From Rhodovulum sulfidophilum DSM 1374 (GTDB lineage Bacteria; Pseudomonadota; Alphaproteobacteria; Rhodobacterales; Rhodobacteraceae): a stretch of 64,000 nucleotides of DNA. Below, in pieces: positions 30,254 to 34,956 of the stretch. The notes under the pieces were generated by a model, which was not told the origin of the DNA, ran no database searches, and saw only the letters and a program-made list of their open reading frames with translations. Every line of letters starts with the position of its first letter. Position 1 is the stretch's first letter. The stretch covers positions 1,612,001 to 1,676,000 of the forward strand of contig NZ_CP015418.1 of the NCBI RefSeq assembly GCF_001633165.1, read 5' to 3'. Both the position numbers and the translations under genes were made by a program.

Positions 30254-30874
30254 TTACGGTGTCCGGCAGAGGGCGGGATCGGCGCAACCCTCGGCGCGAA
30301 ACGGCTGTCGGCGCGCGGGCGGCAGGCCGAGCGCCGACAGATCGTCGTCCATCCGGGCCAGATCGGCAGCGCTCAGCAGGGCGGGATGAACCGTACAGCG
30401 CAGATCGGCGGCAACGCCGCTGTCGCGTAGCAGGCCGAGGCTTTCGCGCGCCTTTGCGCCGCTGCCGGGCGCGCCGGTGATCCGGTCATAGGCGTCGAAG
30501 GGGGCCTTGACGTCGAAACCGATCCAGTCGAGCAGCGGCAGGACGCGGGCGAAGCGCGCGGGATAGGCGCCGCCGGTATGCAACCCGGTGCGAAAGCCCA
30601 TCGCCCGAAGCTCCGCAAGCGCCTCGGGCAGGCCCTTCTGCAACAAGGGTTCCCCGCCCGAGATCACCACGCCGTCGAGCAGCCCGCGCCGGCGGTCGAG
30701 AAAGGCCAGGACCGTGTCCCAGCCGATCCGGCCCGGCCCCGCCGCCAGCAGCTCGGTGTTGTGGCAATAGCGGCAGGCCCAGGGACAGCCCTGGCAGAAG
30801 ACCGTCGCCACCAGTTCGCCCGGCCAGTCGACGCTCGAATGCCGGACCAGCCCGGAGATCGCAAGCTCAGCCAA
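30254..30874 (-). CDS. nrdG: Anaerobic ribonucleotide reductase activating enzyme
   Basis: A radical SAM enzyme of 206 residues that makes the glycyl radical on NrdD. The iron-sulfur cluster motif CxxxCxxC is seen in GCPWACRYCHN (about residues 30-40), and the GGEP motif in VVISGGEPLLQKG (about 70-82). It starts inside the end of the preceding small gene (8-base overlap), so it is coupled to the glycyl-radical-domain peptide it presumably acts on. Confidence 0.93.
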   Translation of the reverse strand: MAELAISGLVRHSSVDWPGELVATVFCQGCPWACRYCHNTELLAAGPGRIGWDTVLAFLDRRRGLLDGVVISGGEPLLQKGLPEALAELRAMGFRTGLHTGGAYPARFARVLPLLDWIGFDVKAPFDAYDRITGAPGSGAKARESLGLLRDSGVAADLRCTVHPALLSAADLARMDDDLSALGLPPARRQPFRAEGCADPALCRTP

Positions 30875-31058
30875 GCTGTGCCTTCGCCTCGTCGAAATAG
30901 ACCCGTTCGGCGGCCTCGCCCTTCTTGCCGGTATTGAAGGACGCCATCGGGCGGTGATAGCCCATCACCCTGGTCCAGACCTCGCAGCGGGTGCGCTCTT
31001 CGTCCGTCAGGACGATTTCGGCATCGCGGGTCGTCATGTCCTTGTCGATCATGGTCAT
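30867..31058 (-). CDS. Stand-alone glycyl-radical domain of anaerobic ribonucleotide reductase
   Basis: A 63-residue protein equivalent to the extreme C-terminus of class III NrdD. It contains RCEVWTRVMGYHRPMASFN followed by TGKKGE; in NrdD the RVxGYxxP motif carries the glycyl radical, here Gly33. The preceding nrdD frame stops after its zinc-binding CPKC region and lacks this motif. A full ribosome-binding site (AAGGAG, 8 bases before the ATG) overlaps the nrdD stop, so this is a real separate gene and not a sequencing frameshift. It should associate in trans with NrdD and be activated by NrdG, whose gene it overlaps. Confidence 0.85.
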   Translation of the reverse strand: MTMIDKDMTTRDAEIVLTDEERTRCEVWTRVMGYHRPMASFNTGKKGEAAERVYFDEAKAQLG

Positions 31059-31070
31059 CGGATCACTCCT

Positions 31071-33077
31071 TCAGCTGGCTTTCGCGCGCTTCGCCGCAAT
31101 CAGCTCGGCGTCGCATTTGGGGCAGAATTCGTGCTCGCCCGCGAGATACCCGTGTTTCGGGCAGATCGAGAAGGTGGGCGTCACGGTGATATAGGGCAGG
31201 CGGAACGAGGACAGCGACCGGCGGACCAGCTTCTTGCAGGCCTCGGCCGAGGAGATCCGTTCGCCCATGTAAAGGTGCAGGACCGTGCCGCCGGTATAGC
31301 GGGCCTGCAGCGGCTCCTGATGTTCCAGCGCCTCGAACGGATCGGAGGTATACCCGACCGGAAGCTGGGTCGAGTTGGTGTAATAGGGCTGATCGTCGGT
31401 GCCCGCCTGCAGGATGCCCGGGAAGCGCTTGCGGTCCTCGCGGGCGAAGCGGTAGGTCGTGCCCTCGGCGGGCGTCGCCTCGAGATTGTACATGTGCCCG
31501 GTCTCTTCCTGGTATTCGACCATCCGGGCGCGCAGGTGGTCCATCAGCCGGATCGCAAGCCCCTGACCGGCCTCGGTCGAGATGTCCTCGCGGTCGTCGG
31601 TGAAGTTCCGGATCATCTCGTTCACGCCATTCACGCCCAGCGTCGAGAAATGGTTTCGGAGCGTGCCGAGATAGCGCTTGGTATAGGGGAAAAGCCCGGC
31701 CTCGATATGGCGCTCGATCACCTTGCGCTTGAGTTCCAGACTTGTGCGCGCGATAGCCGCCAGCCGGTCGAGCGCGGCCAGAAGCCCCGCCTCGTCGCCC
31801 TTGTGCAGATGGCCGAGCCGGGCGCAGTTGATGGTGACGACGCCAAGGCTGCCGGTCTGCTCGGCCGAGCCGAACAGCCCGTTGCCGCGTTTCAAGAGCT
31901 CGGTCAGGTCAAGCTGCAAGCGGCAGCACATCGACCGGACCATATGCGGCTCAAGCTCGGAATTCACGAAGTTCTGGAAATAGGGCAGCCCGTATTTCGC
32001 CGTCATCTCGAAGAGATAACCGGCATTTTCGCTCTCCCACGGAAAATCGGGAGTGATGTTGTAGGTCGGGATCGGGAAGGTGAAGACCCGACCCTTGGCA
32101 TCGCCCGCGGTCATCACCTCCATATAGGCGCGGTTGATCATGTCCATCTCGGACTGCAACGCGCCATAGGCGAAATCGGCCTCGCGCCCGCCGATCACCG
32201 GCACCTGGTCCTTCAGGTCATCCGGGCAGGTCCAGTCGAAGGTCAGGTTGGTGAAGGGCGTCTGGGTGCCCCAGCGCGAGGGCACGTTGAGATTGTAGAT
32301 GAATTCCTGCATCGCCTGACGGACGGCGGCGTAATCCAGCCCGTCGATCCGCACATAGGGCGCCAGATAGGTGTCGAACGAGCTGAAAGCCTGGGCGCCC
32401 GCCCATTCGTTCTGCAGAGTGCCGAGGAAATTGACGATCTGGCCGAGCGCGCTGGTCAGGTGCATCGGCGGACCGGATTCGATGCTGCCGGGCACCCCGT
32501 TCAGCCCCTCGCGCAACAGCGTCCTCAGCGACCAGCCCGCGCAATAGCCCGCGAACATGTCGAGATCGTGGATATGGATGTCGCCGTCGCGATGCGCCTG
32601 GCCGACTTCCGGCGGGTAGATATGGCTCAGCCAGTAATTCGCCGTCACCTTGCCCGAGGTGTTCAGGATCATGCCGCCCAGCGAATAGCCCTGATTGGCA
32701 TTGGCATTCACCCGCCAGTCCGAGCGGTCGAGATATTCGTTGATCGAGCTTTCGACATCGACCAGCACCTGCCGGTCCTCGCGCAGCCGCGCATGCTGGG
32801 CGCGATAGACGGCGTAGGCGCGCACCGTCGCGATCCGGTTGGCGCCGATCAGGGCCTGTTCGACGGCATCCTGGATTTCCTCGATATCGGGCGTGCCATC
32901 CGCGTGGCGGAAGCTCAGCACCCGCACCACCTGGGCGGTGAGATGGGCGGCCTCCTCGGCGCCGAATTCGCCGGTGGCCTCGCCCGCACGGGCGATGGCC
33001 CGGGCGATCCGGCCGGCGTCGAAGGGAACGATCTGGCCGTCGCGGTTGGCGACGGAACGGGGCGAGGGGGCGGTCAT
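31071..33077 (-). CDS. nrdD: Class III (anaerobic) ribonucleoside-triphosphate reductase, catalytic part without glycyl-radical motif
   Basis: Reduces ribonucleotides to deoxyribonucleotides without oxygen or B12. The 668-residue protein begins MTAPSPRSVANRDGQIVPFD. It has an N-terminal ATP-cone (about 5-95), the glycyl-radical-enzyme barrel with the loop Cys in VVTINCARLGHL, and a C-terminal zinc region (ICPKHGYLAGEHEFCPKC, about 640-658). It ends there; the glycyl-radical segment is encoded by the next gene 12 bases downstream. The start at 33077 is chosen over an upstream extension because the ATP-cone begins here. A cobalamin riboswitch lies in the 5' leader. Confidence 0.93.
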   Translation of the reverse strand: MTAPSPRSVANRDGQIVPFDAGRIARAIARAGEATGEFGAEEAAHLTAQVVRVLSFRHADGTPDIEEIQDAVEQALIGANRIATVRAYAVYRAQHARLREDRQVLVDVESSINEYLDRSDWRVNANANQGYSLGGMILNTSGKVTANYWLSHIYPPEVGQAHRDGDIHIHDLDMFAGYCAGWSLRTLLREGLNGVPGSIESGPPMHLTSALGQIVNFLGTLQNEWAGAQAFSSFDTYLAPYVRIDGLDYAAVRQAMQEFIYNLNVPSRWGTQTPFTNLTFDWTCPDDLKDQVPVIGGREADFAYGALQSEMDMINRAYMEVMTAGDAKGRVFTFPIPTYNITPDFPWESENAGYLFEMTAKYGLPYFQNFVNSELEPHMVRSMCCRLQLDLTELLKRGNGLFGSAEQTGSLGVVTINCARLGHLHKGDEAGLLAALDRLAAIARTSLELKRKVIERHIEAGLFPYTKRYLGTLRNHFSTLGVNGVNEMIRNFTDDREDISTEAGQGLAIRLMDHLRARMVEYQEETGHMYNLEATPAEGTTYRFAREDRKRFPGILQAGTDDQPYYTNSTQLPVGYTSDPFEALEHQEPLQARYTGGTVLHLYMGERISSAEACKKLVRRSLSSFRLPYITVTPTFSICPKHGYLAGEHEFCPKCDAELIAAKRAKAS

Positions 33078-33179
33078 GGCGGTTCGCTTTCGGTTCTGGT
33101 CAGGGGCGGCACGCAGGGAGGCACGCGGACCCGCCGGTCCGACGCACGCACCCGAGCCCACCGCTCGCGGTCGTTCGGT

Positions 33180-33350
33180 CCGCTCTGGCAGGTCTCCTGA
33201 CTTCGCGGCTCGGACGCCCTGGCCCTCCTTCCCGGCGTCTTGCGCCAGTGGATCAAGGGGCCGCGGCTTGCCGCTGACAGTTGCGGGGGCAGTGCCGGAC
33301 TCTCACCGGCTTCCCTCTTCGCCCACGGCGCAAACCGCGGGAACCAAAGC
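33180..33350 (-). ncRNA. Cobalamin (B12) riboswitch controlling nrdD
   Basis: Read on the minus strand, the leader has the class hallmarks in order: GGTTCCCGCGG near 33345, then GAAGCCGGTGAGAGTCCGGC, ACTGCCCCCGCAACTGTCAG, and GTCAGGAGACCTGCCAGAG near 33190. These correspond to the B12-box core and flanking helices. The element lies about 100 bases before the nrdD start. Riboswitches of this class lower expression when cobalamin is present. The expression platform was not resolved by eye. Confidence 0.95.
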
Positions 33351-33356
33351 AACAGT

Positions 33357-33386
33357 ATATTGATGTTTGCGGGGGCGTATTGTCAA
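33357..33386 (-). promoter_or_regulatory. Candidate promoter of the nrdD operon
   Basis: On the minus strand, TTGACA (33386-33381) and CAATAT (33362-33357) are 18 bases apart, just upstream of the riboswitch. The ATAT-centred dyad around the -10 (ACAGTATATTGATGT on the plus strand, 33352-33366) weakly resembles an NrdR box, which would fit a ribonucleotide reductase operon. Confidence 0.45.
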
Positions 33387-33591: not shown

Positions 33592-34956
33592 ATGGAACAT
33601 ATGGAATGGCAAGGGCTTCTGACGAAGGCTCGGCACGAGCAGCGCGAGCCTGCCCCGGATGAGGCCGAAACGCGCGCGGCGCGCGATAGGCGGCGTCCGG
33701 CGTTTCTGGCCGATCTCGACCGGGTGATCTTCTCGCAGCCGTTCCGGCGCCTGGCCAACAAGACCCAGGTGCATCCGCTTTACGAGAACGACCACCTGCA
33801 TCACCGGATGATCCACAGCCTCGAGACCAGCAGCGTGGGCCGCTCGCTTGGGTTCGAGGTCGGGCAGGCGCTGGCCGCGAAGAGCATCCTGCTCGACGGC
33901 GCCGGGCACGACCTGTCCTATATCCTGCAGGCGGCCTGTGCCGCCCATGACATCGGCAACCCGCCCTTCGGCCATGCGGGCGAGGATGCGATTTCGGAAT
34001 GGTTCGAGATGCGAAAGCCCTTCGGTGCGGATCTGAGTGAGGGCCAGCGCCGCGAGTTCGAGCATTTCGAGGGCAATGCCCAGGGCTTTCGGATCCTGAC
34101 CCGGCTGGAGATGTCCCGGCGCGAGGGCGGCATGCGGCTGACCCACGCTGTTTTGGGGGCCTTCACGAAGTATCCCTGTCTCGCGCGCGACGGCGCGCTG
34201 GGTAAGGCGGCGCCCTATATCGGACGCAAGAAGTTCGGCGCCTTCGAGGCCGAGGCTGCGCATCTGGAGGAGATGGCGCGAAGCACCGGTCTGATCCCGC
34301 AGGACGGCGGCTGGGTGCGCCATCCGCTGGCCTTCCTGGTCGAGGCGGCCGACAATATCTGCTATAATATCCTCGATCTCGAGGACGCCTTCACCAGCGG
34401 CGTGCTGCCCTTCGGCGAGGTTGAGACGCTTCTGCGGGGACTGATCGAGAAAGATGTCCAGCGGGAGGAGGGGGCCGCCGATGCCCGGTACGACGCCGAA
34501 CATGTGGGCAAGCTGCGGGCTGACGCCGTGGGCGCGCTGATCCGCGCCAGCGTCGCGGCCTTTCTCGATCACCATGACGAGATCCTGGCAGGCCGGTTCT
34601 CGACCGAGCTGACGGATGTCTTCGCGCTGAAAGAGGCCTTCGCGGCGATTTCCGAGGTCGCGAATGACCGGATCTTCCCCTCGTCGCGCAAGATCGAGCT
34701 GGAAGTGGCGGGGCGCGACCTGATCTTCGCGCTGCTCGACCGCTTCCATGCGGTGATCGAGGGGCTGGCCGATCACGGCTGGGATGCCGCGGCGATGGCC
34801 GAGAAGAAACCCTATCTGCGCAAGCTGGTCACCTCGGCCGGGATGGATCTGCGCGATGTCTGCGACCCCTATTCGGGGCTTCATGCCCTGACCGATTTCG
34901 TCTCGGGCATGACCGACCGCTATGCGGTGAAGATGGCGCGGCCGCTGGGGCTCTGA
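33592..34956 (+). CDS. dgt: Deoxyguanosinetriphosphate triphosphohydrolase
   Basis: Hydrolyses dGTP (and often other dNTPs) to the nucleoside and tripolyphosphate. The 454-residue HD-domain enzyme has the first metal His in HRMIHSLETSSVGRSLG (about 72-80), the HD pair in AAHDIGNPPFGHAG (about 117) and a downstream Asp in VEAADNICYNILDLEDAF. Two in-frame ATGs (33592 and 33601) are possible, with GGGAAAG before the first. It is divergent from the nrdD operon, so a dNTP-consuming and a dNTP-producing system share one control region. Confidence 0.92.
   Translation: MEHMEWQGLLTKARHEQREPAPDEAETRAARDRRRPAFLADLDRVIFSQPFRRLANKTQVHPLYENDHLHHRMIHSLETSSVGRSLGFEVGQALAAKSILLDGAGHDLSYILQAACAAHDIGNPPFGHAGEDAISEWFEMRKPFGADLSEGQRREFEHFEGNAQGFRILTRLEMSRREGGMRLTHAVLGAFTKYPCLARDGALGKAAPYIGRKKFGAFEAEAAHLEEMARSTGLIPQDGGWVRHPLAFLVEAADNICYNILDLEDAFTSGVLPFGEVETLLRGLIEKDVQREEGAADARYDAEHVGKLRADAVGALIRASVAAFLDHHDEILAGRFSTELTDVFALKEAFAAISEVANDRIFPSSRKIELEVAGRDLIFALLDRFHAVIEGLADHGWDAAAMAEKKPYLRKLVTSAGMDLRDVCDPYSGLHALTDFVSGMTDRYAVKMARPLGL

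What the first reader, a model, noticed from the sequence alone, without database searches (positions are those of the whole stretch)
30867..33077. Anaerobic ribonucleotide reductase split: the glycyl-radical domain is a separate 63-residue gene
The 668-residue NrdD ends at its zinc-binding CPKC region and lacks the RVxGYxxP glycyl-radical motif. That motif (Gly33) is in the next gene, which has its own AAGGAG ribosome-binding site overlapping the nrdD stop and then overlaps nrdG. A glycyl-radical enzyme with its radical-bearing segment supplied in trans would be mechanistically unusual. The clean ribosome-binding site argues against a frameshift artefact.
Basis: partly seen in the sequence, partly recalled or inferred. 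Interest (0 to 1): 0.78.

Follow-up and report, generated by a model that had tools for sequence, protein, structure and literature searches.

The report
Anaerobic ribonucleotide reductase with detachable radical domain
In this bacterium and many relatives, the piece of the oxygen-sensitive DNA-precursor enzyme that carries the radical is made as a separate tiny protein, and many phages carry only that tiny piece, which suggests an exchangeable, perhaps oxygen-repairable, part of the enzyme.

Summary
The only class III ribonucleotide reductase found in this genome is split: NrdD (668 aa) stops after its zinc finger, and the glycyl-radical loop (RVMGYHRP, Gly33) is a 63-residue gene between nrdD and nrdG. 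Error and readthrough are rejected: in 77 distinct split loci the small gene lies in all three frames relative to nrdD, behind all three stop codons, with a Shine-Dalgarno match in 76. A database search found 2,939 related small proteins. A second NrdD lineage was split at the same boundary, two lineages look re-fused, and in some genomes the genes lie apart. The Cupriavidus necator nrdDG locus, cited as essential for complete denitrification, has the same split. Best reading: an obligate two-protein NrdD whose radical subunit docks in trans and is charged by NrdG (inferred); oxygen-damage replacement is only a hypothesis. Beyond the finding, uncultivated phage contigs encode the domain alone: 30 of 31 whole viral records searched showed no other part of NrdD. 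They are candidate viral spare parts for hosts' split reductases. Databases annotate these genes; ten paper searches found no description of the split. New variant of a known kind.

The parts
31071..33077 (-). nrdD large subunit, 668 aa: ATP-cone 9-96, NRDD barrel, finger loop M383-C384-C385-R386, zinc finger C639/H642/C652/C655; no glycyl-radical loop
31071..31073 (-). TGA stop of nrdD, in frame with the small gene
31066..31071 (-). AAGGAG Shine-Dalgarno sequence of the small gene, overlapping the nrdD stop
   Evidence: general test
30867..31058 (-). small subunit, 63 aa, separate glycyl-radical domain (Gly33 in RVMGYHRP) with the split-type element ERxxCEVW
30960..30962 (-). codon of the predicted radical glycine (Gly33 of the small subunit)
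   Evidence: structural register inferred
30254..30874 (-). nrdG2 radical-SAM activase (TIGR02495, 182.4 bits, cut-off 131.15), TTG start, 8-nt overlap with the small gene
33170..33363 (-). cobalamin riboswitch (RF00174, 131 bits) upstream of nrdD

Best explanation
It is an obligate two-protein class III ribonucleotide reductase. The large NrdD holds the ATP-cone, the barrel with its finger-loop cysteines and the complete zinc finger. The 63-residue subunit supplies the glycyl-radical loop in trans. It is probably unstructured alone and folds as it docks next to the zinc finger, where NrdG removes hydrogen from Gly33. The glycyl radical then makes the finger-loop cysteine a thiyl radical, and NTP reduction proceeds as in other NrdDs. 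Shown: gene anatomy, conservation, co-occurrence, separate translation signals. Inferred from models and homology: docking, activation, chemistry. Hypothesis only: because oxygen cleaves glycyl-radical chains at the glycine, the split leaves a cheap sacrificial part that can be replaced without remaking NrdD. Expression is probably repressed by vitamin B12 through the riboswitch while the genome's B12-dependent NrdJ works (inference).
For: The two proteins abut in the Pfam profile, positions 2-529 and 532-562. One NrdD and no fused copy was found in the genome. In 77 distinct split loci the frame offset to nrdD is 1, 0 or 2 in 34, 22 and 21, with stops TGA 48, TAA 22, TAG 7; 77 of 77 have a suitably placed ATG and 76 of 77 a Shine-Dalgarno match, against 1,218 of 8,722 background ATGs (14%). 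In the window's genus 5 of 16 genomes have the small gene, the same 5 that have NrdD. Of 398 genomes of the window's phylum, 13, its own included, have a separate gene of this type, each with a loop-less NrdD. An independent split exists in an E. coli-type NrdD, G334/G402. Fused rows L071 and L098 nest inside the split clade. The genes are unlinked in G351. In a linked-chain model the loop domain is placed with pLDDT about 79-94 and Gly706 falls at T4 580 and T. maritima 621, while the small protein alone gives a low-confidence model. The C. necator H16 pHG1 locus has this split, and its enzyme is cited as essential for complete denitrification (PMC2864759 passage).
Against: No biochemistry exists here: neither the complex nor the radical is shown. 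The model was a linked chain and 42 of the 58 rows of its alignment are fused homologues, so its placement of the loop is not an independent test of binding in trans. No deletion of the small gene alone was seen in what I read. One MAG (G441) shows a small gene without a large NrdD; it may be incomplete. To three more distant genus relatives the small gene has higher dN/dS (0.30-0.57) than nrdD (0.12-0.13). Oxygen repair is untested.
Confidence: 0.9

Rival explanations
1. Stop-codon readthrough: the TGA is read as an amino acid some of the time, giving a normal single-chain NrdD.
For: In the window and in L003, L005 and L006 the small ORF is in frame with nrdD, four codons after the TGA.
Against: 55 of 77 split loci are out of frame, among them L007 of the same genus; 22 of 77 in frame is near the one third expected by chance; 3 of those 22 have further in-frame stops. 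76 of 77 have a Shine-Dalgarno match before an ATG. In G351 the small gene is elsewhere.
Confidence: 0.03
2. Assembly error or decaying gene: nrdD is broken and the enzyme is dead.
For: The in-frame arrangement in the window is what a recent nonsense change would look like.
Against: The split is found in 2,939 small proteins and 77 distinct loci. dN/dS to the nearest relative is 0.10 for both genes. The C. necator enzyme with the same split is cited as essential for complete denitrification.
Confidence: 0.02
3. The small protein is only a repair cofactor like YfiD/GrcA, for a full-length NrdD.
For: Same principle; extra orphan copies exist in some genomes and on viral contigs.
Against: No full-length NrdD was found in the genome, and in the split genomes examined the large protein lacks the loop. 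So the operon copy must be a constitutive subunit, though extra copies may be spares.
Confidence: 0.04

Closest known systems
Single-chain class III ribonucleotide reductase (E. coli, phage T4, Thermotoga maritima, Prevotella copri NrdD)
   Same: Same barrel, zinc finger, glycyl loop and NrdG activase; the linked-chain model aligns with several solved NrdDs into the loop domain, up to model residue 711-733 depending on the chain.
   Different: There the glycyl loop is the covalent C-terminus; here it is another gene product. The zinc-finger-to-loop linker is 8 residues in 121 of 124 fused relatives collected.
YfiD/GrcA, autonomous glycyl radical cofactor of pyruvate formate-lyase (PMC8683613: abstract and first part of the Discussion read)
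   Same: A small separate glycyl-radical domain with a disordered N-terminus that works with a large enzyme in trans.
   Different: YfiD (of the PF01228 type, as recalled) replaces the loop of an enzyme that normally has its own and was cut by oxygen; the NrdD small subunit matches PF13597 and is the only loop its partner has.
Split class II reductase NrdJa/NrdJb of Pseudomonas aeruginosa (PMC4520616: abstract and outline read)
   Same: A ribonucleotide reductase alpha chain divided into two required polypeptides.
   Different: Class II, B12-dependent; the separated part mediates dithiol exchange, not the radical. [quoted passage not shown]
phrog_4132 (PHROGs, unknown function)
   Same: Matches the window's small protein (E 1.1e-10) and the three viral ones given.
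   Different: No function assigned there; its profile is 179 positions and the matches lie between about 104 and 155.

Membership tests
Class III ribonucleotide reductase (system level) | NRDD barrel and ATP-cone | tested here: met
   PF13597 586 bits, PF03477 71 bits; NCBIfam PRK08270 1,116 bits against a cut-off of 548
Class III ribonucleotide reductase (system level) | Active-site finger-loop cysteine and C-terminal zinc finger | tested here: met
   M383 C384 C385 R386 and C639/H642/C652/C655 invariant in the 58 rows of A2
Class III ribonucleotide reductase (system level) | Glycyl-radical loop RVxGY encoded in the system | tested here: met
   In the 63-aa gene, PF13597 positions 532-562
Class III ribonucleotide reductase (system level) | Dedicated radical-SAM activase NrdG | tested here: met
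   TIGR02495 182.4 bits against a cut-off of 131.15
Single-chain NrdD | Glycyl loop in the same polypeptide | tested here: not met
   TGA before the loop; separate gene
Class III ribonucleotide reductase (system level) | Glycyl radical by EPR and NTP reduction | not testable with these tools
   Needs anaerobic biochemistry
YfiD/GrcA autonomous glycyl radical cofactor | Gly_radical domain PF01228 (that YfiD bears it is recalled) | tested here: not met
   Only PF13597 matched the small protein at E<=1
YfiD/GrcA autonomous glycyl radical cofactor | Partner enzyme has its own glycyl loop | tested here: not met
   Large NrdD lacks it and no other NrdD was found
YfiD/GrcA autonomous glycyl radical cofactor | Binds the partner in trans and is activated when bound | not tested
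   Model hints only
Split NrdJab | Class II (B12-dependent) reductase | tested here: not met
   Best family is NrdD; the genome's NrdJ is a different gene

The most novel reading that the evidence does not exclude
Split NrdDs made the radical domain an exchangeable part, and phages and other mobile elements exploit it. They carry a stand-alone NrdD glycyl-radical subunit (mostly 42-75 residues), without nrdD or nrdG, that loads onto the host's split reductase during infection or lysogeny. It would restore or boost dNTP supply in micro-oxic or anoxic hosts at minimal coding cost. phrog_4132 would then be a viral radical cofactor protein.
Probability: 0.55. Interest if true: 0.87.

Novelty: new variant of a known kind. 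Interest (0 to 1): 0.75.

Why it matters
Class III reductases are described as single-chain glycyl-radical enzymes. An obligate two-protein form, apparently evolved at least twice at the same boundary, gives a natural system to separate radical installation from catalysis, to measure how a radical domain docks, and to test whether splitting is an answer to oxygen damage. It predicts that such NrdDs are inactive if expressed alone. If the viral copies work, they would be very small auxiliary metabolic proteins.

Tried and rejected
Readthrough and frameshift error were rejected on the frame, stop and Shine-Dalgarno counts. A radical loop inside the large subunit was not found: Pfam match 2-529 of 562. 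A fused second NrdD was not found in the genome. A solved relative of the small protein by sequence: three hits at E 0.48-0.73, taken as chance. Cultured phages (INPHARED): the same two weak hits with two queries, one in an annotated NrdD, so the viral copies rest on uncultivated IMG/VR contigs. Plasmids: 28 records with a match, mostly on or beside annotated nrdD or nrdG genes, one of three regions opened being fused. The fold of the 63-residue protein alone gave pLDDT 61.3 and pTM 0.31. Homology search with P0124 listed only proteins 98-100% identical to the Actinomyces query and added little. Papers: ten searches showed none describing a separate NrdD glycyl domain. But most subscription papers are not held, and Siedow 1999 (the C. 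necator nrdDG paper) and Wei 2014 (N. bacilliformis NrdD) could not be read, so earlier notice is possible. [quoted passage not shown] the examples shown there involve introns, inteins, endonucleases or unexplained breaks, not a stand-alone glycyl domain.

Full report
Anatomy. On the minus strand lie, in order, a cobalamin riboswitch (33363..33170, 131 bits), nrdD (33077..31071, 668 aa), a 63-aa gene (31058..30867) and nrdG (30874..30254). NrdD matches PF13597 over profile positions 2-529 and carries an ATP-cone; the small protein matches positions 532-562. NrdD belongs to NCBIfam PRK08270 (1,116 bits, cut-off 548) and NrdG to TIGR02495 (182.4 bits, cut-off 131.15). NrdD ends just after its zinc finger; C639, H642, C652 and C655 are invariant in the 58 rows of alignment A2, as is the finger loop M383-C384-C385-R386. 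So the zinc site is complete in the large chain and only the radical loop is separate. The small ORF is in the same frame as nrdD, four codons beyond the TGA.

Not readthrough, not an error. In 72 of these 80, nrdD lies directly upstream and nrdG directly downstream; one of the 72 (L071) is fused. In 2 nrdG is displaced. In 1 (L085) my motif missed the loop but BLAST shows nrdD, small gene and nrdG. In 5 (L030, L035, L049, L068, L088) no nrdD lies in the DNA held. Over 77 distinct split loci (6 from the window's genome and its relatives, 71 from this scan) the small gene is offset 1, 0 or 2 from the nrdD frame in 34, 22 and 21 cases, after TGA 48, TAA 22 and TAG 7; 3 of the 22 in-frame cases have further in-frame stops. 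That script dropped duplicates such as L034, and also L036, which one search shows as split in frame after TGA. All 77 have an ATG 45-170 nt before the motif, and in 76 at least one such ATG has a Shine-Dalgarno match, against 1,218 of 8,722 single background ATGs (14%). One genome of the window's own genus (L007) is out of frame. dN/dS of the small gene to the nearest relative is 0.10, as for nrdD. To three more distant relatives it is 0.30-0.57, where nrdD has 0.12-0.13; this count covers the whole small ORF with its variable N-terminus and leader codons.

Distribution. 2,939 proteins of 2,940 candidates match at E<=0.001; 120 were listed. In the window's genus 5 of 16 genomes hold the small gene, and the same 5 hold NrdD. 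Of 398 genomes of the window's phylum (unnamed; I take it as Pseudomonadota from the named relatives), 57 have a PF13597 match. The A1 profile finds 16: 13 separate genes, the window's included and all with a loop-less NrdD, and 3 fused (G066, G153, G417). Two further genomes of one genus, G334 and G402, show a second, independent split: an E. coli-type NrdD of 682 aa ends after its zinc finger, followed by TAG, 12 nt, and a 60-aa ATG gene with RRITGYLVG that overlaps nrdG. So 15 of the 57 are split. Against the pattern: G441, the MAG of L088, showed the small gene without a large NrdD; it may be incomplete.

Evolution. A quick maximum-likelihood tree of the large chain without the loop (56 rows) puts 12 fused rows, relatives of an alphaproteobacterial protein, in one starred clade. 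The fused Simkaniaceae (L071) and Actinomyces oris (L098) rows fall among split rows, inside a node starred at 96. The least number of fused/split changes is 4, with 2 forced by starred branches. Cautions: one of four outgroup rows (L099) fell beside L135, not with the other three; L130 and L135 are long branches and their places are unsure. In 121 of 124 fused proteins collected (the 120 best hits of one fused query, plus four from loci) the zinc-finger-to-loop linker is 8 residues; the exceptions are L071 (23), L098 (16) and P0125, which has no CxxC there. The element ERxxxE[VI]WTRVMGY marks split-type loops: 119 of 120 listed small proteins, 1 of 124 fused ones (L071). I read L071 and L098 as re-fusions, which is evidence that the parts work as one enzyme.

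Unlinked and extra genes. In G351 nrdD lies about 9 kb from the small gene, which sits directly upstream of nrdG. In two Holosporaceae MAGs nrdD is on one contig and the small gene with nrdG on another. Magnetospirillum fulvum has an operon copy plus one between a cobalamin riboswitch and class I nrdA and nrdB. BMS3Bbin13 has an operon copy plus one in a stretch with an nrdJ end, a RecT-like gene and ssb.

Function. The C. necator H16 megaplasmid has the same order: 676-aa NrdD, a 66-aa protein annotated nrdD, then NrdG. [quoted passage not shown] It lists CH34's genes as Rmet_5137 and Rmet_5139, skipping one, which I take to be the small gene (inference). The window's genome also has a B12-dependent NrdJ (PRK07562, 2,217 bits, cut-off 1,737), a second NrdJ-type protein and class Ib NrdE. 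So B12 repression of nrdD through the riboswitch makes sense (inference from known riboswitch logic). The riboswitch stands upstream of nrdD in 4 of 4 genus relatives scanned and was not found in three betaproteobacterial loci (L016, L062, L096) of the same call. The mechanism is as stated in the best explanation; the oxygen-repair step rests on analogy with YfiD, which rescues oxygen-cleaved PFL (PMC8683613, abstract and first part of the Discussion).

Viral stand-alone domains. A scan of IMG/VR matched 184 stretches, 130 confirmed, best 80 kept. In 79 of 80 no NrdD match (tblastn 1e-4) is found in the DNA held; L234 has NrdD and NrdG (L170 was tagged fused there but has no NrdD match). My ORF caller kept 71 of the 80; of these 58 have at least 1 kb upstream and 46 of 57 distinct ORFs are 75 residues or shorter. 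In 31 whole viral records that I chose from the 80 (15-212 kb), PF13597 found only the loop end of the profile in 30, and most of NrdD in one (that of L234); the records may be fragments. Neighbours that I chose from nine loci (20 proteins scanned, 15 matched) include endolysins, integrases, portal and head-tail proteins, tape measure, tail fibre, DNA polymerase, processivity factor and clamp loader. The split-type element is in 76 of 80 loci. Among 64 distinct DNA cores pN/pS is 0.32 over 89 pairs, which share rows and are partly saturated; WTRVMGY is invariant by my choice of motif, but R, R, N, K, E and R columns outside it are also 64 of 64. phrog_4132, of unknown function, matches the window's small protein and the three viral ones given. 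Cultured phages gave only two weak hits. No host assignment was made for the viral contigs.

Known or new. Databases already name many of these small genes 'anaerobic ribonucleoside-triphosphate reductase'. None of the papers that I saw describes the separation (ten searches; of the papers opened I saw passages, outlines, abstracts or one section). [quoted passage not shown] PMC3653736 mentions split RNR genes in some organisms without detail. I therefore rate it a new variant of a known kind, with the viral part the most novel reading.

Noticed in passing
window 33170-33363, minus strand; also L003, L005, L006, L007: Cobalamin riboswitch (RF00174) upstream of nrdD in the window and in 4 of 4 genus relatives scanned; the genome also has a B12-dependent NrdJ.
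   Followed up: partly
L030 3459-7275 (Magnetospirillum fulvum): A cobalamin riboswitch followed by an orphan NrdD-type glycyl-radical gene and class I nrdA and nrdB, apparently one B12-regulated unit.
   Followed up: partly
L165, L171, L172, L191, L203, L204, L235: Several viral glycyl domains carry a Cys-rich N-terminal extension with a GRxxPxDC-like pattern; function unknown.
   Followed up: no
   Followed up: partly
window 33592-34956, plus strand: A dGTP triphosphohydrolase gene (TIGR01353, 316 bits, cut-off 152) lies divergently beside the riboswitch and nrdD.
   Followed up: no
L130 (G250): A diverged split NrdD of a 0.9-Mb genome with SMGF in place of VMGY in the small protein.
   Followed up: no
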